64,000 bases of DNA from Nitrospirota bacterium (GTDB taxonomy: Bacteria > Nitrospirota > Thermodesulfovibrionia > Thermodesulfovibrionales > UBA6898), in the NCBI GenBank assembly GCA_016214855.1, contig JACRMT010000004.1, forward strand, positions 806,001 to 870,000. The letters run 5' to 3'. The notes under the pieces were generated by a model, which worked only from the letters and a program-made list of their open reading frames with translations, was not told the DNA's origin and did no database searches. The position numbers and the translations under genes were made by a program. Positions 461 to 53,956 of the stretch are shown here, one piece after another. The first letter of the stretch is position 1, and every line of letters starts with the position of its first letter.

Positions 461-1407
461 CAGACCACTGCCTTCAGGAGATAAATGGCAATGAGAACAA
501 CAGCCCAAACAGAAAGAATGACGACCAGGGGGGTCATGCCTTCCTGCACTATAGCGTCAAAGTCAACAGAGAAACCGATAGCGCCAAGCCCGGCGGCAAA
601 ACAGAAGGTGCTGACCGTACGGCTGATATCCTGCAATTGCCGCAGGAGGGGAACCGTATTTACCAGGACGGCAAGGACAAGAAAAACAGCCGCAAACCAG
701 GGGATCTTGACCTTGGCCCCTGATACCCCTGCCCTGAATACTACCAGGGGCAGAACAAAGAAGAGAAATGCGATGCGGACCAGCTTGATCTGAAGCGCGC
801 TTTCGAGACTTTCAGGAGCGACACTGCCTGCAGCAACCTTTACCTGACCTACCATGGGGAGCGTTGTGCCGGCAAAGAAATTGAACTCTTCCCTGCTCAG
901 GGGGGAAAAGTCATAGACAAGAGGATAGAAGATCATGCCGAAGAGGCCGAGCATCATTACAGAAAGTATCGAGATGGACGTCTCCTCCCGCTTTGCCCCT
1001 ATAAGCGGCGAGATGATCGCAATGGCCGAGGCCCCGCAGATCGAGAGTCCGGAGGCAAGGAGCAGAGTAAGATTGCTTCCCAGGGAAAAAACGCGCGAAA
1101 GCAGCATCGTTCCGCCAAAAAGCGCTGAAAAGACCAGGAAGATACTGAGAACAAGACCGGGCTGAAGAGCGCTTATTGAAAGCTGCATGCCATAAAGAGC
1201 GATCCCGACAGGCAGAAGCACCTGCGTCCCGATATCCATGCCGCGCGCCGACGATCTCCGCACGCCGGCCATGTTTCCGATCACCATGCCGATAATGATC
1301 GAAATAACAAGCGCATCAAAAGATGCATGCAGCGAGGCCAGATAGATGGACAACAAGGCGATACCGGTCAGAAGAAAAGCTCCCGGCATGTAATTTTTTA
1401 AGTTCAT
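460..1407 (-). CDS. YeiH/UPF0324 family putative sulfate exporter
   Basis: This 315-residue polytopic membrane protein has about ten hydrophobic segments. It matches the conserved YeiH/YadS family (Cons_hypoth698): L-L-P-V-G-I-A-L-Y-G near residue 70, S-I-C-G-A-S-A-I-A near 122 and a G-Q-V-K-V-A-A-G segment near 190. Members are predicted anion (sulfate) exporters; the substrate is not proven. It is translationally coupled to the HAMP sensor gene, which suggests a sensor/transporter pair. No Shine-Dalgarno is visible. A TAAAAT box at 1418-1423 lies ten bases before the ATG, so the leader would be only a few bases long. Confidence 0.8.
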   Translation of the reverse strand: MNLKNYMPGAFLLTGIALLSIYLASLHASFDALVISIIIGMVIGNMAGVRRSSARGMDIGTQVLLPVGIALYGMQLSISALQPGLVLSIFLVFSALFGGTMLLSRVFSLGSNLTLLLASGLSICGASAIAIISPLIGAKREETSISILSVMMLGLFGMIFYPLVYDFSPLSREEFNFFAGTTLPMVGQVKVAAGSVAPESLESALQIKLVRIAFLFFVLPLVVFRAGVSGAKVKIPWFAAVFLVLAVLVNTVPLLRQLQDISRTVSTFCFAAGLGAIGFSVDFDAIVQEGMTPLVVILSVWAVVLIAIYLLKAVV

Positions 1408-1478
1408 AGCCGCGTGTATTTTACCATAAAAAAAGAGGCGGCAAGATCAAGATAAGAAGGAGCCGCTGTATTACGCGC

Positions 1479-2741
1479 TCAGGGCTGTCCGGCAAGAAAC
1501 GATTCCATGTCGGAAATCCTCAGTTCTCCCTGGCCTGGCTCTGCAAGGTTCTTCCACTTCACCATTCCGGAACGCAGTTCATCGTCTCCCATGATAAAGA
1601 CATGGCGCACTGCCATTCTGTCAGCCCTGCGCATCTGGCTCTTCAGCGAGCTTGCGGCATCACCGACTTCAACCCAGAGGCCCTGTCTTCTCAACTGTTC
1701 AGCAAGAACAAGACAGGCGCTGCCTGCTGCATCGCCGAGTGCAGCAAAAAAAACAGCAGGAGACGGAGGTTTCTGAAGTTCGGTCTTCTTCAACAGCTCG
1801 ATCACCCTCTCCATGCCCAGGGCAAAACCGACAGCAGGCGTCTCAGGCCCGCCGAACTCCTTTACCAGCCGGTCATATCTGCCGCCGGCTGCCACCGCAT
1901 TCTGCGCTCCAAGGCTCTGACTCGTTACCTCAAAAGTGGTTCTGGTGTAGTAATCAAGTCCCCGCACCATATCAGCATTAAGGGAGTAGGGCACCTGAAG
2001 GAGTGTCAGGAATCCCTGGAGTTTTTCAAAGTGAGAGCGGCATCCTTCACAAAGATGGGCGGTTATCTTCGGAGCGCCCTGCCTCTGCTCCCGGCAGGTG
2101 CCTGCCTTGCAATCAAGGATCCTCAGAGGGTTTTTGTCATATCTTCTTTTGCAGTCATCACACAGGTGCTCTTTTTTATCAGCAAAGAAGCCCAGGAGGG
2201 CATCACGATAACCTGGCCTGCACTGCTCACAGCCTATGGAATTGACCTGAAATGAGACACCTTCAAGCCCTATGCCGGTGAGCAGACGTCCCAGCATCGC
2301 AATGATCTCTGCATCCATGCCCGGGCCGGGATCTGCAAAGGCTTCAACACCGATCTGATAGAACTGCCTGAATCTCCCGGACTGGGGCCGTTCATACCGG
2401 AACATGGGGCCAAGGTAATAGAATTTCTGCGGCGCCGCAAGTTTATCGAGATGATTTTCCACATAGCTGCGCACAACAGATGCCGTGCCTTCAGGCCGCA
2501 GGGTAACGCTCCGGTCTCCCTTATCCGTGAAGGTGTACATCTCCTTTTCGACAATATCCGTGCTCTCGCCGATGGAGCGCGAAAAGACCGTCGTGGATTC
2601 CATGATCGGTGTTCTGATCTCCTGAAAACCATAGGTCGAAAAGATCTGCCGGGCAGTCTGCTCGACCTTCTGCCAAATAAAACTGTCAGGCGGCAGGATA
2701 TCCTGCATGCCCTTCAGGGTCTTGTACTGCAGGCTGCTCAC
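1479..2741 (-). CDS. hisS: Histidyl-tRNA synthetase
   Basis: This class II aminoacyl-tRNA synthetase charges tRNA-His in the cytoplasm. The 420-residue length is normal. Visible signatures are motif 2 (F-R-Y-E-R-P-Q-S-G-R-F-R-Q-F near residue 115), the histidine-specific loop G-L-D-Y-Y-T-R-T near 262, the A-A-G-G-R-Y-D motif near 287 and a C-terminal anticodon-binding domain. An insert with several Cys pairs (C-x2-C around 170-235) may bind metal. The ATG overlaps the stop of the DivIVA gene (ATGA), making it the last gene of the yggS-proC-yggT-divIVA-hisS operon. Confidence 0.97.
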   Translation of the reverse strand: MSSLQYKTLKGMQDILPPDSFIWQKVEQTARQIFSTYGFQEIRTPIMESTTVFSRSIGESTDIVEKEMYTFTDKGDRSVTLRPEGTASVVRSYVENHLDKLAAPQKFYYLGPMFRYERPQSGRFRQFYQIGVEAFADPGPGMDAEIIAMLGRLLTGIGLEGVSFQVNSIGCEQCRPGYRDALLGFFADKKEHLCDDCKRRYDKNPLRILDCKAGTCREQRQGAPKITAHLCEGCRSHFEKLQGFLTLLQVPYSLNADMVRGLDYYTRTTFEVTSQSLGAQNAVAAGGRYDRLVKEFGGPETPAVGFALGMERVIELLKKTELQKPPSPAVFFAALGDAAGSACLVLAEQLRRQGLWVEVGDAASSLKSQMRRADRMAVRHVFIMGDDELRSGMVKWKNLAEPGQGELRISDMESFLAGQP

Positions 2742-3217
2742 TCGGGCATTACTTCCCTGTCGCTGGTCTCCCAGCGCTCATCGGTTTCAAGCATCCTCAG
2801 ATGCCCTTCGACCAGCCTCTTCAGCTCTTCCCGGAAATGGCGGCGAATACCCTTCATGTCCGTTATGTCCTCGTGGATCTTTATGACCTTCTCATGCGCT
2901 TCCTTGATCATGATATCAGCCTTGGCCTCTGCTTCCTTCACCAGGAGCTCTGCCTCTTTCCGCGCATTCGTCTTGTAGTCTTCGACCATCTGCTGGGCGG
3001 TCATGAGCGTCTCCTTGAGCGTTATCTCCATGTCGCGGTATTCCCTGATCTGACTCTCCGCCCTCTGGATATTCTCTTTGAGATTCGAGTTCTCTCTGAG
3101 CAGGTCCTCCATCTCTTCACGGACGATCTCAAGAAAACCGAACACCTCCTCGACATCGAATCCCCTGAACTTCATTTTGAACTGCTTCTGCTGGATTTCC
3201 AGCGGCGAGATTCTCAT
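2738..3217 (-). CDS. DivIVA-domain coiled-coil protein
   Basis: This 159-residue protein begins with the DivIVA N-terminal lipid-binding region. It opens I-S-P-L-E-I-Q-Q-K-Q-F and has the F-R-G-F-D-V-E-E-V-F-G-F-L motif near residue 18. Almost continuous heptad-rich helix follows to about residue 140, predicted as a coiled coil. DivIVA proteins mark curved or polar membrane and recruit division or envelope factors. The gene overlaps yggT upstream and hisS downstream by four bases each (ATGA). The yggS-proC-yggT-divIVA order is a classic cell-envelope and division neighbourhood. Confidence 0.9.
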   Translation of the reverse strand: MRISPLEIQQKQFKMKFRGFDVEEVFGFLEIVREEMEDLLRENSNLKENIQRAESQIREYRDMEITLKETLMTAQQMVEDYKTNARKEAELLVKEAEAKADIMIKEAHEKVIKIHEDITDMKGIRRHFREELKRLVEGHLRMLETDERWETSDREVMPE

Positions 3218-3528
3218 ATGACGACTCCCCCTTTGATTTTAATGCCGATCTCAACAAGTGAACGTATGAGCACCATCTGGATGAACAGAATGCCGAGTAT
3301 TACTACAATCGGAGAAATATCTATAGGACCAAGTTTATTGCCAAAAAGCCGCCGAATAGGCCTGAAGACCGGTTCTGTAACATTTCTGAGAAAACGGACA
3401 ACCGGGTTGTACGGGTCAGGACTGACCCAGCTTATCAGTGCAGCAATGATCACGATCCATTTATAGATCTCCAGCAGCATGTCTGCTATTCTTCCGACCG
3501 CCATTAACAGGTTCCCGACAATAAGCAT
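3214..3528 (-). CDS. yggT: YggT family membrane protein
   Basis: This 104-residue protein has two strongly hydrophobic segments (about 5-40 and 75-100). Between them is the YggT hallmark: I-S-W-V-S-P-D-P-Y-N-P-V-V-R-F-L followed by T-E-P-V-F-R-P-I-R-R. The family is conserved beside yggS, proC and divIVA and has been linked to envelope and osmotic functions, but its biochemistry is not settled. The stop overlaps the divIVA start. About 97 bases separate it from proC upstream, with no obvious promoter. Confidence 0.9.
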   Translation of the reverse strand: MLIVGNLLMAVGRIADMLLEIYKWIVIIAALISWVSPDPYNPVVRFLRNVTEPVFRPIRRLFGNKLGPIDISPIVVILGILFIQMVLIRSLVEIGIKIKGGVVI

Positions 3529-3625
3529 TCTTACCTCGATGTTTGATGTTGAAGGCTATTTTACAACGGCATGCTCTTTTTTATCTATGCAGGCAAAGAG
3601 ATGCGCCAGGCTGCAGACATCGCCG

Positions 3626-4414
3626 TCAGGCTTTCTTCCCCAACTCCTCTGCCCTGCTTTTTGCGGCAGACAGCGCATCCAGAACCATAGGTTTCAATCC
3701 TTTTTCCTCAAAAACCTTCAGGCCGGCGGCGGTGGTGCCGCCCGGCGAGGTGACCATCTGTCTGAGTTTTTCCGGCGACATGCCGGTATCAAGCAGCTTT
3801 GCTGTACCAAGAGCGGTCTGGACAGCCAGTTCTGCTGCATCATTTCTGTTCAGTCCGAGCTTCTCGCCGGCCTCGATCATCGCCTCAATGAACAGCGCAA
3901 TAAAGGCAGGGCCGCTGCCCGAGACCGCAGTCACTGCATCCATAAGCCGTTCAGGAAGCGCGATCACCCTGCCGACGGACATCAGGATGCTCTTGACGAT
4001 ATTGATCTCGCTGCCGGTAAAGCATTCGCAGAGCGAGTACACGGACATGCCCTCCTGAATAAGGGCAGGCGTGTTCGGCATTACCCTGATGATCTTACCC
4101 GTCTTCAGCCTGGACTGCAGATAAGAAAGCGTGATGCCTGCGGCGATCGAAACAACCGTTTTCGTATCATCGATAACATCTGCTATCTCATCAAGAACGA
4201 CTTCCATGTTCTGCGGTTTCACTGCCAGTATGATGATATCGCAGAAAGAAGCGACCTCCCTACCCGACTGCAGCGTCTTCACCCCATACGTTTTTTCAAG
4301 CTCCTGCCGCCGCTCCAGCCGGGGCTCCGAGACAACGATATCCTTCATGCCTTCTGCTGTCATACCCTTGATCAGGGCCTCTGCCATATTTCCGCCGCCG
4401 ATAAATCCGATCAT
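3626..4414 (-). CDS. proC: Pyrroline-5-carboxylate reductase
   Basis: The enzyme reduces 1-pyrroline-5-carboxylate to proline with NAD(P)H, the last step of proline synthesis. The 262 residues start at ATG 4414-4412, preceded at good distance by G-G-A-G-A-G-A-G-G. An upstream TTG (4432) in the same frame is less likely, because the ATG product begins directly with the Rossmann strand M-I-G-F-I-G-G-G-N-M. The C-terminal dimerisation domain has the A-V-S-G-S-G-P-A-F motif near residue 160. It starts one base after the yggS stop, in the same operon. Confidence 0.96.
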   Translation of the reverse strand: MIGFIGGGNMAEALIKGMTAEGMKDIVVSEPRLERRQELEKTYGVKTLQSGREVASFCDIIILAVKPQNMEVVLDEIADVIDDTKTVVSIAAGITLSYLQSRLKTGKIIRVMPNTPALIQEGMSVYSLCECFTGSEINIVKSILMSVGRVIALPERLMDAVTAVSGSGPAFIALFIEAMIEAGEKLGLNRNDAAELAVQTALGTAKLLDTGMSPEKLRQMVTSPGGTTAAGLKVFEEKGLKPMVLDALSAAKSRAEELGKKA

Positions 4415-4415
4415 A

Positions 4416-5117
4416 TCAACACCTCTCTCCAAAAATTGCTGTTCCTATTCTGACCATAGTAGCGCCCTGCTCTATGGCTGCCTCATAATCATGGGACATG
4501 CCCATCGAAAGCTCAGGAAGTCTGAACCCGTCCTTCTCTGCCTCATCCCGCAGCTCCCTCAGCCGTCTGAAGTATGGCACAACATCACTGACATTCTCCC
4601 GATAGGGGGGAATGGTCATCAGCCCCTCAAGCCGCAGATGCGTCAGCTGCATAATTCTTTCCAGCAGTTCATGCAGGCCCTCTTCTGATACGCCGCTTTT
4701 TGTTTCTTCGTCGGAGAGCTTTACCTGGACCAGGACCCTTTGCGTCTTGCCAAACCTTTCCGCCTGTCTGTCCAGTTCTTCTGCCAGTTCGATCGTATCG
4801 ACAGAATGGATGACCTCAAAGAGCTGCACCGCGTCCTTTGCCTTGTTCTTCTGAAGGTGGCCGATCAGATGCCATTCGAGCTTCTGGGGGAGAGCCCGGA
4901 TCTCATCGCTCATGATCTTCTTTTTGGCCTCCTGAATCCTGTTTTCCCCAAAGAGCCGCATGCCGCTGTCAACAGCTTCCCGAATAGCTCCTGCGCCGAC
5001 CGTCTTGGTAACCACAATGAGCCGTACCTCCTCAGGGCTGCGGTCAGCCTTCACAGCTCCCCGGGAGATAATGCTGCATACTTTCTGTATATTTTCCAAA
5101 ACAGAACCGCTGTTCAT
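4416..5117 (-). CDS. yggS: YggS family PLP-binding homeostasis protein
   Basis: This 233-residue single-domain alanine-racemase-fold protein keeps pyridoxal phosphate levels balanced and has no known catalytic activity. Markers are the PLP lysine in I-V-V-T-K-T (near 35), G-E-N-R-I-Q-E-A, W-H-L-I-G-H-L-Q-K-N-K and the C-terminal S-M-G-M-S-H-D-Y and R-I-G-T-A-I-F-G motifs. Two ATGs are possible (5123, 5117). A TATAAT box at 5126-5131 is only two bases from the first and eight from the second, and there is no Shine-Dalgarno. A leaderless start at 5117 is preferred. It heads the proC-yggT-divIVA-hisS operon. Confidence 0.94.
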   Translation of the reverse strand: MNSGSVLENIQKVCSIISRGAVKADRSPEEVRLIVVTKTVGAGAIREAVDSGMRLFGENRIQEAKKKIMSDEIRALPQKLEWHLIGHLQKNKAKDAVQLFEVIHSVDTIELAEELDRQAERFGKTQRVLVQVKLSDEETKSGVSEEGLHELLERIMQLTHLRLEGLMTIPPYRENVSDVVPYFRRLRELRDEAEKDGFRLPELSMGMSHDYEAAIEQGATMVRIGTAIFGERC

Positions 5118-5167
5118 TGGCATTAATTATAGGGCAGCAGCATGATGAAAATACAATGCAGCACTTG

Positions 5168-5785
5168 TCATGCAGCCCTGATGAACCAGGCGCCGAAAAA
5201 GATGAGAAAAACTGCGCAGGCCGCCAACACGATCTTATATGCCTTTTCCCCCATGATCTTTCTCCCTTTTGCAGCAGCATAGGAGATAAGGCTGTACCAG
5301 ACAAGGTCTGCAGCGATATGGCCGAGGAAGAACACAACAACACCGGCTATGCCGTATTTCATGGAACTCACCAGATAACCGAGACCGATCGTGGCCCACC
5401 AGATGACCCAGTACGGATTCGCAAGGCTTGCGACAATGCCGGTCAGAACAAGGTTCATCTCTTTTATGCCGCTCTCTGCCGACAGATCAAGCCTGACGCT
5501 GCGCAGGTCCTTCAGAATCATGATACCCATAAACACCAGCATACCGCCGCCGGCCAGACTGATCACATATCTCGTTGTTTCGTGTTTCAAAAAGGGCGAG
5601 AGGCCTGCCAGGATCAGCACAATGATCAGAATCTCAAGGATTGCATGGCCAAGGATCAGGAGAGGACCGGTGGATGCGCCCCGCCGGACTGACTCACTTA
5701 CCGTGATCGTAAAGAGCGGTCCCGGCACCAGAGCTCCTGACAATGCGATCATGAATGAAGAAACCGCTATGACGGCAAGATTCAT
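5168..5785 (-). CDS. LysE/RhtB family amino-acid exporter
   Basis: This 205-residue membrane protein has about six hydrophobic helices. Its N-terminus matches LysE translocators: A-L-S-G-A-L-V-P-G-P-L-F-T in helix 1, then G-P-L-L-I-L-G-H-A-I-L-E and a mid-protein N-P-Y-W-V-I-W-W. Members export amino acids or related small metabolites; the substrate here is unknown. The ATG overlaps the stop of the radical SAM gene (ATGA), so the two are co-translated. It may export a product or by-product of that enzyme, but this is only inference. Confidence 0.88.
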   Translation of the reverse strand: MNLAVIAVSSFMIALSGALVPGPLFTITVSESVRRGASTGPLLILGHAILEILIIVLILAGLSPFLKHETTRYVISLAGGGMLVFMGIMILKDLRSVRLDLSAESGIKEMNLVLTGIVASLANPYWVIWWATIGLGYLVSSMKYGIAGVVVFFLGHIAADLVWYSLISYAAAKGRKIMGEKAYKIVLAACAVFLIFFGAWFIRAA

Positions 5786-7413
5786 CCGTTCAAAGCCTTC
5801 TGGTATTCCGCCCAGAGATGCTCTTTGGTAACTCCGGCATCGATGAAGTCCCAGGGGAGGGGCTCAGCGAAATCCTTCTGACGGTAAATGAAGGAAGCGA
5901 TATCGACATCTGCAGAACCTTTCTTTATGACATCGATATCATCAAGGGCAATGCGCTCTGCTACCCGGCCGACACGTCTGTCCCCCAGGGCGAAAAGTCC
6001 CTGCAGGTGCGCCTGTTTGGGTATATCATGGAGCACCTTGACGCCTTTTTCCCGGGCAAGTCCCTTCTTTATCATCTGAAGTTTTTCCTTGATGCTCTTC
6101 AGCGGCTCCATGGGATGCCACTGAAACGGCGTAAAGGGTTTCGGCACAAAGGTGCTGACGCTCAAACGGATCTGCCCTTTGCGCGTATTCCTGCGAATAG
6201 TCCTGACCAGATCCATCATGCCGTCAATATCTGCCATGGTCTCTGTCGGCAGACCGATCATAAAGTAGAGCCTCAGCGTCTCGACACCGCACTCCAGTAT
6301 CTGTCTTGCGGTCTCAAGGATGTCCTCCTCGCCGATCTTTTTGTTGACCACATCCCTCAGGCGCTGCGTCCCGGCCTCAGGTGCAATGGATATGCTCCTG
6401 TGTCCCTTCATCAGCCGTACAAGTCTTGCACTCTTCGGACTTGCCCGCAATGAGGTGATAGAGAAGTCAACGCCCTCCATCTGCAGTATTTCTTCTGCAT
6501 GCGGATAATCGGAAAGGGACGGCCCGATAAGGCCGATCTTCTGCGTTCGCTGAACTGCGGCCCTGATCTCTGCAGAAAGTTCTGCAAAGTCTTTCTTTCT
6601 CGGCGGGTTATAAATATGGCCTGCAACGCAAAAACGGCAGGACCAGGGGCAGCCCCGCATTGCCTCAAGGAGAAACATGTTAGAGAACTCAGCGTGGGGA
6701 GTCAGGATCGTTGACCTGAGAAAAGACCGCGCAATGTCCTTTATGGTCCTTTTGCATACGGTTTCCGGAGCATGATGAGACACATCCCTTCCCGTGATCT
6801 TTCCTGCCTCGTCATAACGCACAGTATAGAACTCCGGCAGATAAATGCCCTTGACTGCGGTCAGTTTCTCAAGAAGCTCTTCCCGCCCACCTGCTCCACG
6901 ATAATGTGAAAGAAATTCTTCAAGCATCTCCTCTGCCTCGCCGACGAATATGACATCCATGAAATCGGCAAGCGGCTCAGGATTATAAAAAGCAGCTACG
7001 CCTCCCATGATCACCAGAGGATGATGCGACGACCGATCAGAACGCCGCAGAGGGATCCTTGCCATCTTCAGCATCTTTAGCAGGTTCGGGTAATCGTTCT
7101 CAAACGATACGGAAAATGCGATGATATCAAAGGCAGAAAGGGGTCTTTTTGACTCAAGGGAAAAGGGCTCAGAACCTGACTTCTGATATTCCTCCAGATC
7201 TTCCTTGTCAGGAAAAAAAATCCTCTCGCAGACGACATCACTCAAACTGTTGAAAAAGCCATAGATACCCTGAAATCCCAGACTCGACATGGCAACGGAA
7301 TATGTGTTGGGGTAGCAAAGGCCAATATTTATCCTGCCGCCGGGATCCTTGAATATCACACCTTTTTCCTGTGATATCAATGAGTTTGCTTTATCTTTCA
7401 GCTTTCTGTTCAT
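5782..7413 (-). CDS. Radical SAM protein with B12-binding-like N-terminal domain
   Basis: About 543 residues. The N-terminal half (to about 190) resembles the cobalamin-binding-like region of TIGR03960-type proteins: I-G-L-C-Y-P-N-T-Y near residue 30, then F-D-I-I-A-F-S-V and V-I-M-G-G-V-A-A-F. The radical SAM core has C-P-W-S-C-R-F-C (C-x3-C-x2-C) near 250, then S-I-A-P-E-A-G and a (beta-alpha)6-like run. The substrate is unknown. ATG 7413 is chosen; an in-frame GTG at 7425 is the alternative. Neither has a good ribosome site, and a TATAAT box lies near 7440. It is coupled to the LysE exporter. Confidence 0.88.
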   Translation of the reverse strand: MNRKLKDKANSLISQEKGVIFKDPGGRINIGLCYPNTYSVAMSSLGFQGIYGFFNSLSDVVCERIFFPDKEDLEEYQKSGSEPFSLESKRPLSAFDIIAFSVSFENDYPNLLKMLKMARIPLRRSDRSSHHPLVIMGGVAAFYNPEPLADFMDVIFVGEAEEMLEEFLSHYRGAGGREELLEKLTAVKGIYLPEFYTVRYDEAGKITGRDVSHHAPETVCKRTIKDIARSFLRSTILTPHAEFSNMFLLEAMRGCPWSCRFCVAGHIYNPPRKKDFAELSAEIRAAVQRTQKIGLIGPSLSDYPHAEEILQMEGVDFSITSLRASPKSARLVRLMKGHRSISIAPEAGTQRLRDVVNKKIGEEDILETARQILECGVETLRLYFMIGLPTETMADIDGMMDLVRTIRRNTRKGQIRLSVSTFVPKPFTPFQWHPMEPLKSIKEKLQMIKKGLAREKGVKVLHDIPKQAHLQGLFALGDRRVGRVAERIALDDIDVIKKGSADVDIASFIYRQKDFAEPLPWDFIDAGVTKEHLWAEYQKALNG

Positions 7414-45865: not shown

Positions 45866-47872
45866 TTATTGAGCATTTCCGAGCACGAGTTCGACTGCCT
45901 CGCTTATCCTGTCTATGTAGCTGACCTTAAGGCCCTTGAGTATTTCAGGAGGAAGGTTCTCGATATCGACCCTGTTTTTGAGAGGCAGGATAACATGCTT
46001 CACCCCTGCCCTGTGCGCTGCAAGAAGCTTTTCCCTGATCCCTCCCACAGGAAGCACTCTGCCGCTCAGGGTGATCTCGCCGCTCAGCGCAACATCCCTC
46101 CGCGCCGGTCTGCCGGTGAGCAGAGAAAGCAGCGCAAGCACTATGGTGCTGCCTGCAGAAGGCCCATCCTTCGGGATCGCGCCTGCCGGCACATGGATAT
46201 GGATATCATGGTTCTCGAAAAAATGTTCCTCTATGCCGAACTGCGCTGCATTGCTCCTGATATAGCTCAACGCCGCCCGGGCCGACTCCTTCATGATATC
46301 GCCGAGGGACCCGGTCAGGATCAGCTCCTGTTTCCCGGCCATCTTCGCTGCCTCGACAAAAATGATCTCGCCGCCGATATCTGTCCAGACAAGCCCCGTA
46401 GTAACGCCGATCCGATCCTGTTCGTCTGCCACCTCAAAGTAGAACTTCCTCGGCCCCAGAAGTTTTTCGACCATCACCGGGGTGACGGTCATAGCCTCAA
46501 CATGATCAGCATGCTGAACAAAATCCTTTGCGATCTTCCTGCAGACAGAGGCGATCTCCCTGCTCAGCCCCCGGATTCCCGCTTCATGGGTATACTCCTG
46601 CACAATCTTGTATAGTGCCGCTTCGTTAAACAGCGGAGGACTGTCCCTAAGGCCGTTCTCCCTGATCTGTCTCGGCACAAGGAAGTTCGCCGCAATATTG
46701 ACCTTCTCTTCTTCCGTATACCCCGAAAAGTGGATCACCTCCATACGGTCCCTGAGAGGCCCCGGGATATTCTCTGCCACATTCGCGGTGATGATGAACA
46801 TCACTCCCGAAAGATCGAACGGCATATCCAGGTAATGGTCAAGATAGCCGGCATTCTGTTCAGGATCCAGGACCTCCAGAAGGGCTGAAGCCGGATCTCC
46901 CTTGAAGTCATGGCCGATCTTATCGAGCTCGTCGAGAATGATGACAGGATTGCAGACACCCACCCGCCTGATCTCGTCTATAATCCTGCCGGGCATGGCG
47001 CCTGCATACGTCCGTCTGTGTCCCCGTATCTCAGCCTCATCTTTTATGCCGCCAAGGGATATCTTCGCAAATTTTCTGCCGACAGCGCGGGCAATAGACC
47101 TGCCCAGAGATGTCTTGCCGGTTCCGGGCGGCCCTGAAAAACAGAGCACTGATCCCCGCGTATCCTGCCGTACAGCCCTCTTTTCGAGGGCCTGGTTCAC
47201 AACATGTCTGACGTCATCCAGTTTGAAGGGCTTTGCAATATAATGAAAAGCTCCTTTTTTCATCGCCTCGACTGCAGTATGGATCGTTGCGTACCCGGTG
47301 ATCATGATCACCTGTGTACTCGGGGACCTGGTCTTGATCTTTCCGAGCACCTCAAGACCGTCCATCTTCTCCATCTTGAAATCGGTCAGCACAACATCGA
47401 ACTCCGTATTTTCAATCGCAGCAAGGGCCTCATAACCGTCCTTTGCCGTCTGGACCGTGTAATTCTCCTTGAGCAGGACATGAGACATGTTCCTGCGGAC
47501 GATCTCCTCATCATCAACAACGAGTATCTGCGGCCTCCTGCTCATCTTCAGTTTTTTCACTGCGAGATGTTCAAGGATGCGCTCCTTGATCTGGGTAAGT
47601 CCGTAGTGCTCTTCATTAAGTATCCGCTCTGCCAGTTCAAGGTCAAGGATATCCTCGGTCCTCGTCTTCCAGGGCATGGACAGGAGGTATTCGATGTATG
47701 TCAGGCCTATGGTATATTCTGAGGTCGAGGGGCCTATTCTGAAGAGCAGTTCGAGTTCCCTGTCGATGACCTCTTTTACATGGTTCCCCAGGTCGGTATT
47801 TGTAACTTTTTCCCTCAGTTTGTCGAGAACAGGGTCCTGCTGCGGTTCATCATTTCTTCCGAACAGTTTCAT
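45866..47872 (-). CDS. Lon-like ATP-dependent protease with an inserted receiver domain
   Basis: The 668 residues lack the usual Lon N-terminal substrate domain. Order: helical segment with the Lon motif Y-I-E-Y-L-L-S-M-P-W (near 60) and L-N-E-E-H-Y-G-L (near 88); a receiver domain (about 115-230), phosphorylation site V-L-T-D-F-K-M; Lon AAA+ (about 240-430) with G-P-P-G-T-G-K-T and I-I-L-D-E-L-D-K; and the Ser-Lys protease domain with K-D-G-P-S-A-G (near 575) and the catalytic Lys in G-V-K-H-V. It is divergent from kinase 2. TACAAT six bases before the ATG suggests a leaderless message. Confidence 0.93.
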   Translation of the reverse strand: MKLFGRNDEPQQDPVLDKLREKVTNTDLGNHVKEVIDRELELLFRIGPSTSEYTIGLTYIEYLLSMPWKTRTEDILDLELAERILNEEHYGLTQIKERILEHLAVKKLKMSRRPQILVVDDEEIVRRNMSHVLLKENYTVQTAKDGYEALAAIENTEFDVVLTDFKMEKMDGLEVLGKIKTRSPSTQVIMITGYATIHTAVEAMKKGAFHYIAKPFKLDDVRHVVNQALEKRAVRQDTRGSVLCFSGPPGTGKTSLGRSIARAVGRKFAKISLGGIKDEAEIRGHRRTYAGAMPGRIIDEIRRVGVCNPVIILDELDKIGHDFKGDPASALLEVLDPEQNAGYLDHYLDMPFDLSGVMFIITANVAENIPGPLRDRMEVIHFSGYTEEEKVNIAANFLVPRQIRENGLRDSPPLFNEAALYKIVQEYTHEAGIRGLSREIASVCRKIAKDFVQHADHVEAMTVTPVMVEKLLGPRKFYFEVADEQDRIGVTTGLVWTDIGGEIIFVEAAKMAGKQELILTGSLGDIMKESARAALSYIRSNAAQFGIEEHFFENHDIHIHVPAGAIPKDGPSAGSTIVLALLSLLTGRPARRDVALSGEITLSGRVLPVGGIREKLLAAHRAGVKHVILPLKNRVDIENLPPEILKGLKVSYIDRISEAVELVLGNAQ

Positions 47873-47962: not shown

Positions 47963-49516
47963 ATGTCGCTCAAGAAGAAAATAGTGCTCAGCTTCCTTGT
48001 CAGCGCAGGCATTATAGCAATGCTTTCTGCCTTCCTGTATCTGAACTTTATAGAGATAAAAAAGGAAACGATCTTCCTCGAGCTGACCGATACCATACGG
48101 TCCAAATCCCTGCAGCTCAGGCGTCATGAAAAGAACTACTTTCTCTATGCGCCTGAGCATGCCGCAGACGAATCCAAAGCGATCTACGGGTATCTGACCG
48201 AGCTGGACGACCTGCTCAACAGTGCAAAGACACCGGCAATGAACCGGGCGGCTTCACTGAGGGGCCTTTTTCAGGAATACCGGGACCAGTTCAGCAGGAT
48301 CGAGTCGCTCGTGGCAGGTGTAGATTCCGAATCCAACAAACTGAAGAGTTCATTGCCCGCATATCGCCGCGTGAGCGACCTCATAGAGGCAAACTTTCTG
48401 GACAAACCCCTGGAAGACATCGCCTATCTCCGGGATACGCTCGCACTGCAGCCGGACCATTCGATAGTCGTAATACTTGGTGAACTTGATGCCGGGATCA
48501 CTACACTCCGGAAGACAGGAGAAAATATTCTTGTTGCCTCAAAGGAACTTGATAAAGAGGCGCGCGAAAAAGTTGACCGTTTTATTCATCTCTCGCGAAT
48601 CGCCATACTGGTATTCTTTCCCCTTTTCCTCATAGCCGGCTTCGGCACGACTCTGTTCATTATCAGTAATGTTGTCAAGAGATTGCATCTGCTCACCGCT
48701 CTTATTGAAAAAACAGGATCAGGGAATTACTTCCATCTTGAGGAACCACCGTCCTCATGGAGCGGGGACGAAGTGGGCCAGCTCATCAGGACATTCAACG
48801 ACATGGAGGACCAGCTCAGCCAGAGGGAAAAGGAGCTGCTGCAGTCCAAGAAGCTGGCTGCCATCGGCACCCTCGCATCAGGTGTTGCCCATGAGCTGAA
48901 CAACCCGCTTAATAATATTTATACCACCGCACAGAGGCTTATGAAGAAGGCTGGTGACGACAGTCCCGAGTATATAACAAAAGGGCTCAACGACATCTTC
49001 GGCCAGACCATGCGCGTAAAGAGCATTGTCGGCGACCTGCTCGAATTCGCACGCGGAAGAGAACCCCATCTTATGGCAGTAGAATTACGCGGACTTATTC
49101 TTGAAGCGTACAAACACCTCGAAAATACCCGGGATATGCAGGGTATCCGACTCTCCCTTGAGCTGACGCCTGAGGAGATAGTCCTGTACGCAGATACGAA
49201 ACAGCTCGAACAGGTATTCATCAATATTTTTTCGAACGCCCTGGATGCCATGTCCGGCCGGGGAGAGCTTTTGATAAAGGCAAAGGAAGATGAGAGCAGG
49301 ATCGCCATGCGGATCACTGATACCGGCAGCGGCATCCCAAAAGACGCGCTCGACAAGATATTTGAGCCCTTCTTCACCACAAAGGACAAAGGAACAGGTC
49401 TCGGCCTTGCTATCGTATTCAACATCATCCAGAAACATCACGGAGAATTGACCGTTGAGAGCGAAGAAGGAAAAGGCACCACATTTATTATCTCATTGCC
49501 GAAAAATCACCGGTAA
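47963..49516 (+). CDS. Sensor histidine kinase (pair 2)
   Basis: The 517 residues run: membrane helix (about 9-29), helical sensor domain (about 32-205) with [13 protein letters not shown], second helix (about 212-235), HAMP, HisKA with [12 protein letters not shown] near 305, and HATPase ([20 protein letters not shown]). It is strongly similar to kinase 3 at 58194, including the N-terminus. TGCTAATAT ends seven bases before the ATG and no ribosome site is present, so it is probably leaderless. Partner of the activator downstream. Confidence 0.95.
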
Positions 49517-49532
49517 AGGAAGACTATATTCC

Positions 49533-50864
49533 ATGGCATTCAGGATACTCATAGCAGAAGACGAAGAGATCACGCTGAACAACATTCTCGATACCCTGAA
49601 GGATGAGGGTTACGATGTTACAGCCACAAAGGACGGCAGCACAGCCCTCCAAAAACTCCAGCAGGAGCATTTCGACGTTCTTATCACCGACATCAAGATG
49701 CCCGGCATGACCGGCATCGAGCTCCTTGAACACGTTAAAGAGCAGTACGCCGCAACGGAAGTGATCCTTATCACAGGATTTGGCAGCATCGGCTCTGCAG
49801 TGGAGGCGATGCAGAAGGGAGCATATGACTACATCACAAAGCCTTTTGATCTTGACGAGCTTGTGCTGCGGGTCAGGAAGATCCTGGAGCAGAAGGCACT
49901 AAAGAAAGAGAATCTCGCGCTCAGGACCTATTTCGGCATGGATAAGAAGGTCTCGATCATAGCCAAGAGCGACAGCATGAAGCGCATCCTCGAAACCATT
50001 GAAGGGATAAAGGATTCAGACATCAACATGCTCCTTACGGGCGAGACAGGCGTGGGCAAGAGCCTGATCGCGAAGATCATCCATTTCACCAGCAGGAGAC
50101 AGCAGCGACCTTTTCTGGCCATCAACTGCGCAACCCTCACTGAAGACCTCCTTGCAAGCGAACTGTTCGGCCATGAAAAAGGCGCATTCACCGGGGCCAT
50201 ATCTACAAAGCAGGGGCTTGTCGAAATCGCCGATTCCGGCACCCTATTCCTTGACGAAATAGCAGAGCTCTCTCCAAACCTTCAGGCAAAGCTCCTGAAG
50301 GTTGTAGAGGAAGGCGAGTTTTACCGCGTAGGTGGCACGAAACCGCAGAAGGTTGATGTCCGTTTCATCGCTGCGACAAATCAGAATGTAAAAAGCCTGA
50401 TGGCAGAGGGAAAGTTCAGGGAGGATCTGTACTACCGGATCAATGTGATGGATATATTCATTGCTCCCCTGCGTGAACGGCAGGACGACATCCGTCCGCT
50501 TAGCAAATACTTTCTCCAGAAGCATCTTCCCAAGGCAGGCAAGAAATTGTCCGGCATATCTGATGAGGCAATGGAGATCCTCCTGCATTACAGCTTTCCG
50601 GGCAATGTACGTGAGCTCGAAAATATCATCGAGCGCGCCATCATTCTTGAAAAAAGCCCTGCCATCACGCCCGAGAGTTTGCCACATGGCATACGGGTGC
50701 TTCAGATCGAGACCTTTGACCCTGACAAGATAAAGACTATCGATGAGATCTCCAGGGATTACGCTGAGAAGGTCACGAAGATGTTAGGCGGCAACCGGTC
50801 AAAAGCGTGTGAACTGTTAGGCATATCAAGAACGAGTTTGTGGAAGATACTAAAGGAAGAGTAA
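49533..50864 (+). CDS. Sigma-54-dependent response regulator (pair 2)
   Basis: ATG 49533 follows AAAGGAAG and yields 443 residues. The receiver has V-L-I-T-D-I-K-M (Asp near 52) and I-T-K-P-F-D. The AAA+ domain has G-E-T-G-V-G-K-S and G-A-F-T-G-A. The Fis-type HTH ends A-C-E-L-L-G-I-S-R-T-S-L-W-K-I-L. It is similar throughout to the regulator at 59747. Likely targets are sigma-54 promoters such as the one upstream of cassette C, 2.6 kb downstream. Confidence 0.95.
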   Translation: MAFRILIAEDEEITLNNILDTLKDEGYDVTATKDGSTALQKLQQEHFDVLITDIKMPGMTGIELLEHVKEQYAATEVILITGFGSIGSAVEAMQKGAYDYITKPFDLDELVLRVRKILEQKALKKENLALRTYFGMDKKVSIIAKSDSMKRILETIEGIKDSDINMLLTGETGVGKSLIAKIIHFTSRRQQRPFLAINCATLTEDLLASELFGHEKGAFTGAISTKQGLVEIADSGTLFLDEIAELSPNLQAKLLKVVEEGEFYRVGGTKPQKVDVRFIAATNQNVKSLMAEGKFREDLYYRINVMDIFIAPLRERQDDIRPLSKYFLQKHLPKAGKKLSGISDEAMEILLHYSFPGNVRELENIIERAIILEKSPAITPESLPHGIRVLQIETFDPDKIKTIDEISRDYAEKVTKMLGGNRSKACELLGISRTSLWKILKEE

Positions 50865-50967
50865 TACGTAGCTCACAACTGCTTTTACTGTCGGGGATTT
50901 CTTTTCTTGAGTGACACAACTACCTTCAAAGCATGACAATTTCAGTGATAACGGTCACACCAACGCC

Positions 50968-50996
50968 TTGACAAATACTGTCATACATTGTAAACA
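50968..50996 (+). promoter_or_regulatory. Candidate promoter of the toxin-antitoxin pair
   Basis: TTGACA (50968-50973), a 17-base spacer and TAAACA (50991-50996) with TG one base before it. It lies a few bases upstream of ATG 51003, leaving almost no leader. Confidence 0.4.
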
Positions 50997-51002
50997 TATA
51001 AC

Positions 51003-51272
51003 ATGGTTTTTTATGAAGAAACCGTTAAGAAGGCCGTTTCCAAGGGTTCTTTACCCAAAGATATTTTTCATAAATTCAGCAATGTTTTCATTGCATTGGA
51101 TACAACTCACGACTTGAGCCTCTTTGACATCAGGAGGTTAAAGTCATCTGAAACGAGAACCTACTATCGCGTCAGGAAAGGGAAATACAGGGCCATATTC
51201 TATATTGAAGATAACAGCTATTTTGTTATCACCATCGCCAAAAGAGAGGAGGTATACGATAAATGGGAGTGA
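51003..51272 (+). CDS. RelE/ParE-like toxin
   Basis: These 89 residues have a helical N-terminus and the RelE-type core R-R-L-K-S-S-E-T-R-T-Y-Y-R-V-R-K-G-K-Y-R, then A-I-F-Y-I-E-D and I-T-I-A-K-R-E-E-V-Y. This family includes ribosome-dependent mRNases (RelE) and gyrase poisons (ParE). The gene overlaps the ribbon-helix-helix antitoxin by ten bases, with the toxin first (reverse order, as in higBA). Confidence 0.8.
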   Translation: MVFYEETVKKAVSKGSLPKDIFHKFSNVFIALDTTHDLSLFDIRRLKSSETRTYYRVRKGKYRAIFYIEDNSYFVITIAKREEVYDKWE

Positions 51273-51478
51273 TCTCGATAAGATTGAATAAAGACGAGGA
51301 AAAGATCCTGAAAAAATTGTCCGACCATTTTCATGAAGACAAGTCAGCGCTGGTAAAGAAATCACTGCTTGAATTGTATGAACATACTTTAGATTTGAAT
51401 GAGATTAAGAAGTTCGAAACCAGGGAGCATAAGGGAAAGACTGCTTTTTACACAGCTGAGGATATTTTAAAATCATAG
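51263..51478 (+). CDS. Ribbon-helix-helix antitoxin
   Basis: These 71 residues start I-S-I-R-L-N-K-D-E-E-K-I-L-K-K-L, the RHH beta strand and helix, followed by D-K-S-A-L-V-K-K-S-L-L-E-L-Y-E. The C-terminal part likely neutralises the RelE-like toxin. Its AGGAGG site lies inside the toxin gene. RHH antitoxins usually also repress their own operon. Confidence 0.82.
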   Translation: MGVISIRLNKDEEKILKKLSDHFHEDKSALVKKSLLELYEHTLDLNEIKKFETREHKGKTAFYTAEDILKS

Positions 51479-51552
51479 AAAGGCAGACCTGCCCGGCTTA
51501 TCAAGAACAAGTCTTTGGAAGATCAGCCGAAACGTTAGAGCGCGAATAATAA

Positions 51553-52020
51553 ATGAAAAAGAAAATAGAAAATATCATTAAAATCGATTATTGGCCATCA
51601 GCACATGCAAAAAAAGCTTATGCCGATGGTTATTACATTGAAGCTATTCAGGTTGAACATGCCTGCATTGAGCGTCAACTTCGTGAACTGTTATTTCTCA
51701 CAAGGACAAAGCCTGGCCCACATGACAACTTTGATTTAGCCTATGACTCAATGCTGGAAATTCCATTCAATACGTCTGTAAAGGTACTCTTTATTCAAAA
51801 AACAATATCACAGAGAGTCCGTGACAGATTATTAGCATTCAACAAGACAAGAAATAATATTATTCACAAAATATTTTTCGATTCAGCAAGCGGCGACTGG
51901 CATGGTTACCCAAAGACTCAATATGATCGGGCCTTCAAGGACGGTTTGAATTTGATGAATCTATTGGAAGACAAAGTTCACAATTACGATTTAAATAAGG
52001 CTGAAAAGGATAACAAATGA
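51553..52020 (+). CDS. HEPN-like protein
   Basis: This 155-residue, AT-rich, mostly helical protein has E-A-I-Q-V-E-H-A-C-I-E-R-Q-L near 32 and an R-N-N-I-I-H motif near 103, which fits the R-x4-6-H signature of HEPN domains (RNases or toxins). It is coupled to the next gene (ATGA). The pair follows a toxin-antitoxin operon and may be a toxin or defence module. Assignment is by motif only. Confidence 0.6.
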   Translation: MKKKIENIIKIDYWPSAHAKKAYADGYYIEAIQVEHACIERQLRELLFLTRTKPGPHDNFDLAYDSMLEIPFNTSVKVLFIQKTISQRVRDRLLAFNKTRNNIIHKIFFDSASGDWHGYPKTQYDRAFKDGLNLMNLLEDKVHNYDLNKAEKDNK

Positions 52021-52508
52021 TGACATCAAGACAATGTGAAATTGCAGCAGAGTCTTATGCTGCGTGTCTGCTCGCCCAAGCAGGTTATGATGTTTTGGTT
52101 CAATATGGCGCGAATCAGCCGCATTATGATCTTGTGGCAAACAAAGACAGGAGATTTTTGCCAATATCGGTAAAAGGCAGTCAAGATGGCGGTTGGATGC
52201 TGGCAGTGCGTTACAAGAAAGAGGACTCAAGCTATCACGATGCTATCGATAGCTGGCTTGCTTCGCAGCGCGATGACGTCATTTTTCTCTTTGTTCAGTT
52301 TATTCACGTCTCTATCGGTGACGCCCCAAGGGTCTACATTGCAAGACCCGCCGAAATAGCAGACCATATGAAAGGCCAGTGTCACGGCCGGGGGCATGGC
52401 GCTTTACAGGAAGACTATCAGCGCGATCATCCCAATTCAAAGTATGATCATAAGGTGCCTCAAGCATGGCTGTTTTCTCAGAAACGAATAGATGAAATAA
52501 AGCTCTAA
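52017..52508 (+). CDS. Restriction-endonuclease-like (PD-(D/E)XK type) protein
   Basis: The 163 residues (ATG 52017; ATG 52020 also possible) begin with a helix (C-E-I-A-A-E-S-Y-A-A-C-L-L-A-Q-A-G-Y), then V-L-V-Q-Y-G-A, H-Y-D-L-V-A and F-L-P-I-S-V-K-G-S. The D...x-V-K arrangement resembles PD-(D/E)XK nucleases, but the acidic residue before V-K is Ser. It may be inactive or use another acid. It is translationally coupled to the HEPN-like gene and ends shortly before a palindromic non-coding stretch. Confidence 0.55.
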   Translation: MMTSRQCEIAAESYAACLLAQAGYDVLVQYGANQPHYDLVANKDRRFLPISVKGSQDGGWMLAVRYKKEDSSYHDAIDSWLASQRDDVIFLFVQFIHVSIGDAPRVYIARPAEIADHMKGQCHGRGHGALQEDYQRDHPNSKYDHKVPQAWLFSQKRIDEIKL

Positions 52509-52778
52509 TCGGGTAGCCGGGGGTAGTTAACCCCCAGCCCCCACAACACCCCGCATGCGGGTCTCCTCCAGAGGACAGGCGCAGTGGGCGGTTCGCAGAA
52601 ATCATCGGGCCTTGGCCGGATAGTGAATCCTGCTCCACAATGTTCGTATGGAAGTAAGCCCCTGCTTTTTTAAAAATAGACGATGGGGTCAGCCCGTTGA
52701 CATAGGACAAAATAACGGCTAATTCTAACCAGATGTTCGAGCCGCCAAGCGGCTCATCTGACGCATTGGACAGATAGA
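52509..52778. other. Non-coding stretch with palindromes, possible mobile-element remnant
   Basis: No protein is supported. GGGGGTAGTTAACCCCC (52519-52535 region) and CCCGCATGCGGG are palindromes. A candidate promoter TTGACA (52697-52702) with TAATTC (52720-52725) follows, and then a hairpin CAGATG-GAGCCG / CGGCTC-ATCTG at 52730-52760. The phrase GGGGTCAGCCCGTTGACAT near 52685 looks like sequence often found beside REP-type transposases, but no transposase is left. Confidence 0.4.
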
Positions 52779-52790
52779 TTGATCGAACCT

Positions 52791-53177
52791 ATGGATCCTG
52801 AAACACTCACATTCCTGCTAAGACGCGGGCATATTGATATGCCCGAAAGAATTGAGCGCGGGTTATGGCCGCATCCGCCGCTTAAGTATTCTGATGTTGT
52901 CCGTCACCTTGCCCACGTCCTTCAATCCGAAAAATGGTTTCCACGTGAATGGAAGCCTGCTGTTCCCGGTGAGTCAGTATGGGAAGGCGGCGTAATCGAG
53001 CGCAAGGCCAGATGGCTCTATATCTATCGGACACAGAGGCATCATCCTCTGGATCCAACCGTTTTCGTCGAAAAGGCCACCTTGATATTTTTCTCGCCCA
53101 AGGCAGCCGCAAGATATTACCTGAAATGGGACTTGAATCTTCCGGGGTATCTGGATGGCTGGAAGGTTGAAAGATAG
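52791..53177 (+). CDS. Hypothetical protein of the accessory region
   Basis: ATG 52791 gives 128 residues; TTG 52779 would add four. It is a soluble protein with many aromatic residues: W-F-P-R-E-W-K-P near 50, W-L-Y-I-Y-R-T near 74 and A-A-R-Y-Y-L-K-W-D-L-N near 105. There are no membrane helices and no recognised motif. It has no clear ribosome site. It lies alone between the HEPN pair and cassette C, and could be an immunity or adaptor protein, but nothing proves that. Confidence 0.5.
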   Translation: MDPETLTFLLRRGHIDMPERIERGLWPHPPLKYSDVVRHLAHVLQSEKWFPREWKPAVPGESVWEGGVIERKARWLYIYRTQRHHPLDPTVFVEKATLIFFSPKAAARYYLKWDLNLPGYLDGWKVER

Positions 53178-53482
53178 TATTTTTTTAAAAAAACGTCGGC
53201 TCGTTTCACTTGGCTCAATGCTGCTGTTAAGACTGTTCATAATCTAAACACCACCTTTTATTCTTCCAAAAGCCATCTCACTCTCGTCAATTTATCCCAA
53301 TTTTTCAAGACGTTAAATGTTCTGTTCCGTATATGGACAGCATTTAAAACTGCATGAATCTGCTGTTCATATTCTAAACACAACAATACCTCATATCGTT
53401 TTTTATATGTAAATTCAAAGAGTTATAGTCTGGCATTCAACATGCTCTATAGGTAATAGATTTTGGAGCAAGGAGGATGGAA
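53178..53482 (+). promoter_or_regulatory. Upstream activating region of cassette C with three TGT-N11-ACA dyads
   Basis: This 305-base AT-rich gap has no gene. Three 17-base dyads of form TGT-N11-ACA occur: TGTTCATAATCTAAACA (53234-53250), TGTTCCGTATATGGACA (53323-53339) and TGTTCATATTCTAAACA (53364-53380). They lie about 200, 110 and 70 bases upstream of the sigma-54-like promoter, typical for activator sites. The first and third extend to near-identical 22-base direct repeats. Confidence 0.65.
53431..53446 (+). promoter_or_regulatory. Sigma-54 (-24/-12) promoter of cassette C
   Basis: TGGCAT-TCAAC-ATGCT keeps the invariant GG (53432-53433) and GC (53444-53445) exactly ten bases apart, close to the consensus TGGCAC-N5-TTGCA. 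Transcription would begin near 53457. The start codon is 52 bases after the first T. Confidence 0.65.
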
Positions 53483-53956
53483 ATGAAGCGGAATCTATTA
53501 TTTGTGACTTACAAAGACGGAGAGATTGACGAAGGTCTCAACTACGCCCTTGATCTGGCAAAGATGACGGACAAAGGCATGGCAGTCCTTTTGGTGAATA
53601 AGAAAAAGCTCTCCGGAAAGCTTGAGCAGATCATGTCAGCAGTGGCCTTTGCTGAGGAGAACGAGCCTGAAACAGCAAGACAGATCATGAATTCCTCGGA
53701 AGCCGGGACGAACCTCACGAGCGCTATTGAGGAAAAATGCAGGACCTCGGGCGTGGCGACCGCAATTCATACAGCCATTCAGGATGCGGCAACCTCCGTA
53801 AAGGACTACCTGAAACAGAACAGCAGCATCGACATGGTTCTGCTCAGCCCTGACATCACAGAAGACGGGAACATCTCTTCGCGCGAGCTCAGCAGACTTG
53901 TACGCACATCATCAAGGCCGATCGTGACCATGGCCAAACAGCCGCAAACAGCATAA
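53483..53956 (+). CDS. Usp-like protein with internal FAE module (cassette C)
   Basis: ATG 53483 is preferred over ATG 53477 because GGAGG touches the first but is six bases from the second. The 157 residues form a Usp-like fold (N-L-L-F-V-T-Y-K-D-G, then I-D-M-V-L-L-S-P and R-P-I-V-T-M-A-K) without the ATP loop. The FAE module is inserted at about 43-69 (L-E-Q-I-M-S-A-V-A-F-A-E-E-N-E). The protein at 62953 has the module at the same residues. First gene of cassette C, 37 bases after the predicted sigma-54 promoter -12 element. Confidence 0.85.
   Translation: MKRNLLFVTYKDGEIDEGLNYALDLAKMTDKGMAVLLVNKKKLSGKLEQIMSAVAFAEENEPETARQIMNSSEAGTNLTSAIEEKCRTSGVATAIHTAIQDAATSVKDYLKQNSSIDMVLLSPDITEDGNISSRELSRLVRTSSRPIVTMAKQPQTA

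What the first reader, a model, noticed from the sequence alone, without database searches (positions are those of the whole stretch)
51003..52508. Possible new toxin or defence pair: HEPN-like gene coupled to a PD-(D/E)XK-like gene
The protein at 51553 has an R-N-N-I-I-H motif in a helical context, typical of HEPN RNases. The next gene, overlapping by four bases, has a D...S-V-K pattern of restriction-like nucleases with a changed acid. They sit directly after a RelE/RHH toxin-antitoxin pair, in an AT-rich accessory stretch. Neither partner gives me a family name.
Basis: partly seen in the sequence, partly recalled or inferred. Interest (0 to 1): 0.6.

Follow-up and report, generated by a model that had tools for sequence, protein, structure and literature searches.

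The report
Mobile lone nuclease beside orphan gene
Two small overlapping genes that look like a toxin or defence pair are probably chance neighbours: one is a widely travelled, strongly conserved stand-alone DNA-cutting-type protein whose missing catalytic acid was probably moved to another place in the fold, the other an orphan with an RNase-like motif.

Summary
In detail: gene A (51553-52020, RNNIIH) overlaps gene B (52017-52508, D...SVK) by four bases, behind a RelE/RHH pair, inside an insert of about 2.36 kb that two sister genomes lack. The pairing is not supported. B has close relatives at 12 other loci (several bacterial phyla, a prophage-like region, two viral contigs); A stands next to none, and B's neighbours differ at each. 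B is the real unit. It has a confidently predicted PD-(D/E)XK fold (pLDDT 89.5), closest to I-Ssp6803I, the SPARDA DREN nuclease and Hjc, and is under strong purifying selection. Its 'changed acid' is a family hallmark: S51 in all 10 full-length members aligned, each with an extra helix bearing D78. Three remote relatives without that helix keep D or Q at the S51 place. The acid has therefore probably moved (PD...SxK...D, like the permuted PD...K...D/E of CCGG-family restriction enzymes), so B is probably catalytic. A has both HEPN sequence motifs but no confirmed homologue, family match or usable model: HEPN stays a lead. Verdict: unnamed variant of a known nuclease kind beside an orphan; modest interest. 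B's role (defence, phage competition, repair) is inferred, not shown.

The parts
52017..52508 (+). Gene B: 163-aa PD-(D/E)XK-fold protein, predicted active site E12, D38, S51-V-K53, D78; stand-alone mobile family
52167..52175 (+). codons of S51-V52-K53 (motif III with serine for the acid)
   Evidence: coordinates follow from the ORF start at 52017
52248..52250 (+). codon of D78, conserved acid in the extra helix after beta-3; candidate relocated catalytic acid
   Evidence: coordinates follow from the ORF start at 52017
51553..52020 (+). Gene A: 155-aa orphan, predicted mostly helical (low confidence), R100-NNII-H105 and E40-x3-R44 (HEPN-type motifs); no clear Shine-Dalgarno-like string before its start
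51003..51272 (+). RelE/ParE-like toxin of the neighbouring TA pair (sub-threshold match)
51263..51478 (+). RHH antitoxin, DUF6290
50865..53223 (.). accessory insert after the NtrC-type regulator gene; absent from sister genomes G004 and G007
51486..51523 (+). 38-nt scrap like the 3' end of an ntrC-type gene (79% to 50811-50848), between RHH and A

Best explanation
B is a stand-alone, horizontally mobile nuclease-type protein with the I-Ssp6803I/DREN/Hjc kind of PD-(D/E)XK fold. It most likely cuts DNA in a metal-dependent way with a permuted active site: motif I E12, motif II D38, motif III S51-x-K53 and a relocated acid D78 in an extra helix after beta-3. It travels as a single gene, found in bacterial accessory stretches and among phage tail and late genes, where it probably acts against foreign DNA or a competing phage (role inferred). 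A is an unrelated orphan, perhaps a HEPN-type RNase, that came to lie upstream of B in an insertion hotspot behind an NtrC-type regulator gene; the ATGA overlap is local stacking, not a conserved module. Shown by computation: predicted fold, conservation of the residues, serine/helix association, purifying selection, absence of A from other B loci, the insert. Inferred: catalysis, the role of D78, the biological role, the HEPN nature of A.
For: B relatives: 8 loci in bacterial genome contigs (66-81% identity in the 7 full-length ones, one truncated), 1 in a same-phylum genome (85%), 1 in a prophage-like region (38%), 2 in viral contigs (39%, and a 55% fragment). DNA similarity ends at the ORF; neighbours differ at each locus. 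Fold: AlphaFold pLDDT 89.5; VIA-align 2ost_B Z 12.2 (135 residues, 4.3 A), SPARDA 9qcc_Y Z 10.9 (120, 3.2 A), Hjc 2wj0_A Z 9.9 (115, 3.1 A). Sequence: PDDEXK_5 at 3.6e-5, below its cut-off. Active site: S51 together with the D78 helix in 10 of 10 full-length members aligned; D or Q and no helix in 3 of 3 remote relatives aligned. Precedents: permuted PD...K...D/E (PMC6344858, passages); PD-XXK-E (PMC551604, passages); DREN residues D41/Q60/K62 (PMC12205087, passages). Selection. Against a pair: A absent beside 12 of 12 other B loci; G+C differs.
Against: The serine/helix association rests on one evolutionary contrast, and the three remote relatives are only 17-27% identical. S51 could equally mark a DNA-binding protein that does not cut. 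There are no activity data. The 4-base overlap and a purine-rich AAAAGGA string in A's 3' end before B's ATG would fit translational coupling in this genome. Defence-like genes lie near B in a minority of loci only.
Confidence: 0.6

Rival explanations
1. A and B are a true two-gene module (for instance HEPN RNase toxin plus a PD-(D/E)XK partner acting as antitoxin or second effector), rare or lineage-specific.
For: Four-base ATGA overlap and a purine-rich string before B's start inside A; both HEPN motifs in A; position behind a TA pair. At one B locus (L006) two genes with RNxxxH lie close by: 5218-5943 - (weak RTasHEPN match, 0.0025) and 4290-5165 +.
Against: A beside 0 of 12 other B loci; not found in the 8 B-bearing genomes (best E 0.28). 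B is conserved without A. Base composition differs. The RNxxxH genes at L006 show no significant similarity to A (5218-5943: BLASTP E 0.48) and L006 has no tblastn hit to A.
Confidence: 0.1
2. B is a DNA-binding protein that has lost catalysis (a dead PD-(D/E)XK fold), for example a regulator or decoy.
For: Serine in place of the motif III acid or amide in 10 of 10 full-length members.
Against: E12, D38 and K53 are kept in all 10 of these, unusual for a dead site; an alternative conserved acid D78 appears exactly in the serine-bearing group.
Confidence: 0.2
3. B is a free-standing homing endonuclease of the I-Ssp6803I type.
For: I-Ssp6803I is the best solved match (Z 12.2); mobile single gene of similar length.
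Against: No Rfam match, so no group I intron, at 50800-53600; DNA similarity stops at the ORF and the neighbours differ, so no common target site is seen.
Confidence: 0.1

Closest known systems
I-Ssp6803I (PDB 2ost; homing endonuclease, PDDEXK_5-like)
   Same: Fold, size and order of E/D/xK motifs; best VIA-align Z 12.2 over 135 residues. PDDEXK_5 is the only Pfam match of B.
   Different: No intron and no common insertion site; B has serine at the third position and an extra D78 helix. That I-Ssp6803I has glutamine there is recalled, not from a call.
SPARDA DREN nuclease domain
   Same: PD-(D/E)XK fold, Z 10.9; active site with a non-acidic third residue (D41, Q60, K62; PMC12205087, passages).
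   Different: DREN is fused to APAZ and works with a short Argonaute; B is a single domain of 163 aa.
CCGG-family restriction enzymes (Cfr10I, NgoMIV, BsaWI)
   Same: Proposed permuted site PD...K...D/E with the acid after the lysine (PMC6344858, passages). That Cfr10I has Ser-Val-Lys there is recalled.
   Different: B is much smaller, has no detectable sequence relation, longer K-to-acid spacing (25 residues) and no paired methylase of conserved kind.
PHROG 5018 (phage proteins of unknown function)
   Same: 9 of 10 members of alignment A2 match, best 9.4e-9.
   Different: Window B matches over residues 1-93 only; function unknown, so no mechanism follows.
HEPN_MAE_28990 (PF18737), for gene A
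   Same: RNNxxH stretch; weak bridge through L051 (A to L051 E 0.0088 in one genome; L051 to PF18737 5.6e-4).
   Different: A itself matches no Pfam family; the bridge is not significant over the genomes searched.

Membership tests
[quoted passage not shown]
   Model pLDDT 89.5 with H4-21, E25-28, E39-43, E46-55, H73-82, E89-94, E105-109; best solved matches are PD-(D/E)XK nucleases, Z up to 12.2
PD-(D/E)XK superfamily (gene B) | motif I glutamate, motif II aspartate, motif III lysine | tested here: met
   E12 in 12 of 13 rows, D38 and K53 in 13 of 13
PD-(D/E)XK superfamily (gene B) | acid (D/E) two residues before the motif III lysine | tested here: not met
   S51 in 10 of 10 B-type rows; D, Q and D in the 3 remote relatives
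permuted PD...K...D/E site (CCGG-family type) | acid relocated downstream of the lysine, in space at the metal site | tested here: inconclusive
   D78 conserved in 10 of 10 B-type rows, its helix missing in 3 of 3 acid- or Q-type rows; no coordinates to measure distances
PDDEXK_5 (PF11645) | score above the curated cut-off | tested here: not met
   24.3 bits against 26.1; other B members also below it
nuclease function | metal-dependent cleavage | not testable with these tools
   needs purified protein
HEPN superfamily (gene A) | Rx4-6H with N, D or H after R | tested here: met
   R100-N-N-I-I-H105; definition from PMC3710099 (passages). Conservation not testable without homologues
HEPN superfamily (gene A) | upstream Ex3[KR] | tested here: met
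   E40-RQL-R44; both motifs together arise in 4.9% of shuffles
HEPN superfamily (gene A) | HEPN helical-bundle fold | tested here: inconclusive
   all-helical model but pLDDT 46.9; no Foldseek match with E <= 0.001
HEPN superfamily (gene A) | profile match to a HEPN family | tested here: not met
   0 Pfam families up to E 10, 0 PADLOC; best NCBIfam 0.077 to MPN403_MG284_C
two-gene TA or defence module | conserved adjacency of A and B | tested here: not met
   0 of 12 other B loci
known defence systems in PADLOC-DB 2.0.0 | profile match | tested here: not met
   0 families for A, B, RelE and RHH
homing endonuclease (functional class) | gene inside an intron or intein, or at a common target site | tested here: not met
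   no Rfam match at 50800-53600; flanks of B not shared between loci

The most novel reading that the evidence does not exclude
B founds an undescribed family of single-gene, mobile anti-phage or phage-against-phage nucleases whose PD-(D/E)XK active site was rebuilt as PD...SxK...D by gaining a helix with the metal-binding acid, and which circulates between phage tail and late modules and bacterial accessory stretches across several phyla.
Probability: 0.2. Interest if true: 0.5.

Novelty: new variant of a known kind. Interest (0 to 1): 0.3.

Why it matters
It corrects a tempting toxin/defence-pair reading and replaces it with a testable one. The family gives a compact natural case of how a PD-(D/E)XK site can move its acid, with remote relatives that keep the older arrangement, so a few point mutants could show whether the move preserved catalysis. 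Its wide spread as a single gene under strong purifying selection also makes it a candidate for a small defence or phage-competition nuclease that family libraries currently miss (B falls just under the PDDEXK_5 cut-off).

Tried and rejected
A as member of a named family: no Pfam, PADLOC or significant NCBIfam match; weak PHROG matches up to 0.0079 judged chance-level. A homologues: none confirmed in genome contigs, viral contigs, plasmids, phages, or by whole-genome search beyond its own genome at E <= 0.001 in 101 genomes; at E <= 0.05, 4 other genomes of 295, 0 of 154 and 10 of 277, several with in-frame stops or in unrelated ORFs; only L051 shares the RNNxxH stretch. The genome sets overlap in part. 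PDB by sequence: nothing for A; the profile A3 gave only weak unrelated hits. Foldseek on A's poor model: nothing meaningful.

B in phage and plasmid records: tblastn with window B, with the L016 member (phages only) and with the L045 member found nothing. A conserved partner of B: none. An adenine-type methylase gene lies near B at 2 of 2 phage- or prophage-borne loci with full-length B (L016 adjacent, L045 about 0.75 kb away); phages often carry such genes, so I did not build a restriction-modification reading on it. Homing endonuclease rejected as the main reading for lack of intron and common site. Solved-structure search by sequence for B reached only a UPF0102 protein (0.27, 0.0077). Rows left out before the serine/helix count: L005 (identical to L004), L010 and L017 (truncated), L060 (in-frame stop). 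Of the seven sister genomes, 2 show the empty site (G004, G007), 1 another insert of about 4.6 kb at the same place (G003), 1 a contig end soon after (G005), and in 3 (G001, G002, G006) other sequence follows. Literature: six answered searches gave no description that I recognised as this family; titles and abstract starts were all that I saw except for the passages cited; PMC1913061 and PMC548270 were also seen as passages.

Full report
What is there. The four ORFs named or implied by the finding are real open frames at the given coordinates. A (51553-52020) carries R100-NNII-H105; B (52017-52508) starts in the ATGA overlap and carries D38 and S51-V-K53. Upstream lie a RelE/ParE-like toxin gene (sub-threshold, 0.017) and an RHH antitoxin gene (DUF6290, 6.6e-14). 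A, RelE and RHH are AT-rich (G+C 0.36-0.39); B is not as far from its surroundings (0.467). The window is G000:C4:806001-870000 of a 3.3-Mb genome.

The insert. Eight of eight genomes of the genus, own included, have the upstream NtrC-type regulator gene. In G004 and G007 its end is followed almost directly by the sequence that begins at 53224 (G004) or by 53410 onward (G007), so that 50865-53223 is extra in this genome; in G003 a different stretch of about 4.6 kb sits at the same place. The other four of the seven sisters show a contig end (G005) or other sequence (G001, G002, G006). A 38-nt copy of the 3' end of an ntrC-type gene lies between RHH and A (51486-51523 against 50811-50848, 79%; 84% to the G002 gene), a trace of earlier recombination at this spot.

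B is a family of its own. One scan of genome contigs found eight relatives, seven full length at 66-81% identity, in MAGs labelled Syntrophaceae, Acidobacteriota (two identical), Aquabacterium, Ignavibacteriales, Proteobacteria and Blastocatellia, plus a truncated one in Desulfobulbaceae. Profile searches added G159 (same phylum, 85%; 2 of 295 genomes hit, own included), G480 in a prophage-like region (2 of 300 genomes of the order of G104, the centre included) and a remote one, G361 (2 of 155, the centre included); the phylum of G102 gave only its centre (1 of 297). Viral contigs gave L016 (39%) and a fragment, L017, both among tail genes. Seven named congeners searched lack it. Synonymous sites are saturated while non-synonymous change is low in 4 of 4 comparisons: an old, selected gene, sporadically distributed, hence horizontally mobile.

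B is not tied to A. DNA similarity between loci stops at the ends of B. A has no tblastn hit next to any of the 12 other B loci (for L004 and L005 only 335 bases upstream exist). In the eight genomes behind L003-L010 the best match to A had E 0.28. The gene in front of B differs each time: response regulator, methylase, antitermination-like protein, nothing close (names from my reading of the sequences except the methylase). Across all whole-genome searches A matched only its own genome at E <= 0.001. itself warns that an empty answer without a positive control shows little; searches contain the own-genome control.

Fold and active site of B. The model built on ten relatives has pLDDT 89.5 and the order of elements of the PD-(D/E)XK core. 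Foldseek and VIA-align rank I-Ssp6803I (Z 12.2), SPARDA DREN (Z 10.9) and Hjc (Z 9.9) first. By sequence B reaches PDDEXK_5 only below its cut-off and PHROG 5018. In an alignment of 13 proteins, 10 of 10 B-type members have S51, K53, D38, E12 and an extra helix (residues 73-82 of the model) with D78; 3 of 3 remote relatives (L046, L059, L061) lack that helix and have D, Q and D at the S51 position. Two published patterns make sense of this: motif IV residues in the helix after beta-3 contribute to the site (PMC1913061, passages), and CCGG-family restriction enzymes carry the acid after the lysine, PD...K...D/E, with E, Q or D (PMC6344858, passages; PMC551604, passages). I therefore propose that B kept catalysis by moving the acid to D78. 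This is one evolutionary contrast and has no distance measurement behind it.

What A is. A has no family, no confirmed homologue and a poor helical model. It does carry the two sequence features given for HEPN RNases: Rx4-6H with N after R, and an upstream Ex3[KR] (PMC3710099, passages). Shuffles of A show both in 4.9% of cases, so the motifs alone are weak. The best outside lead, L051 (E 0.0088 in one of 277 genomes), aligns RNNIIH with RNNLAH and itself matches HEPN_MAE_28990 at 5.6e-4, below cut-off. With many hundreds of genomes searched, such an E-value is expected by chance, so I count it as a lead only.

Function. For B I favour a metal-dependent DNA endonuclease acting on foreign or competing DNA. 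The grounds are the fold, the kept catalytic residues, the selection, the mobility, the presence in phage modules and defence-like neighbours at a minority of loci: a TIR-type gene (PADLOC PDC-S35, 2.5e-47) in L003 and an AriA/OLD-like ATPase gene in L016. A review table links PF11645 with several phage-defence systems (PMC10952713, one passage), but B matched none of the PADLOC models. Repair or recombination (Hjc-like) is not excluded.

Verdict. B is an unnamed variant of a known kind with a nice active-site puzzle; A is an orphan with a HEPN-type motif.

Noticed in passing
window 45866-47872 (-): A 668-aa Lon-type protease carries a response-regulator receiver domain (residues 116-225, PF00072 2.5e-31) directly before its AAA+ domain: a Lon protease apparently under two-component control, next to a histidine kinase-like gene (47963-49516) and an NtrC-type regulator gene (49533-50864).
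   Followed up: partly
window 53233-53251 and 53363-53381: Two copies of CTGTTCATAWTCTAAACAC, 0 expected by chance, before the 53477 gene; similar copies follow the regulator gene in siblings L031-L033. They look like binding sites of the adjacent NtrC-type regulator, with a sigma-54-like promoter near 53430 (my reading).
   Followed up: partly
G003 contig C65 (L028), about 1266-5889 on the reverse strand: A different insert of about 4.6 kb at the same place behind the NtrC-type gene: this gap is an insertion hotspot in the genus.
   Followed up: no
L006:5218-5943 (-) and L006:4290-5165 (+): Two genes with RNxxxH motifs next to B in the Aquabacterium MAG (the first with a weak RTasHEPN match, 0.0025), not recognisably related to A.
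   Followed up: partly
L016:4985-8295: In a viral contig B sits between a D12-class adenine methylase gene and an AriA/OLD-like ATPase gene among tail genes: a possible accessory cluster.
   Followed up: partly
window 50811-50848 and 51486-51523: A scrap of an ntrC-type 3' end behind the TA pair suggests that recombination used the 3' end of this regulator gene.
   Followed up: partly
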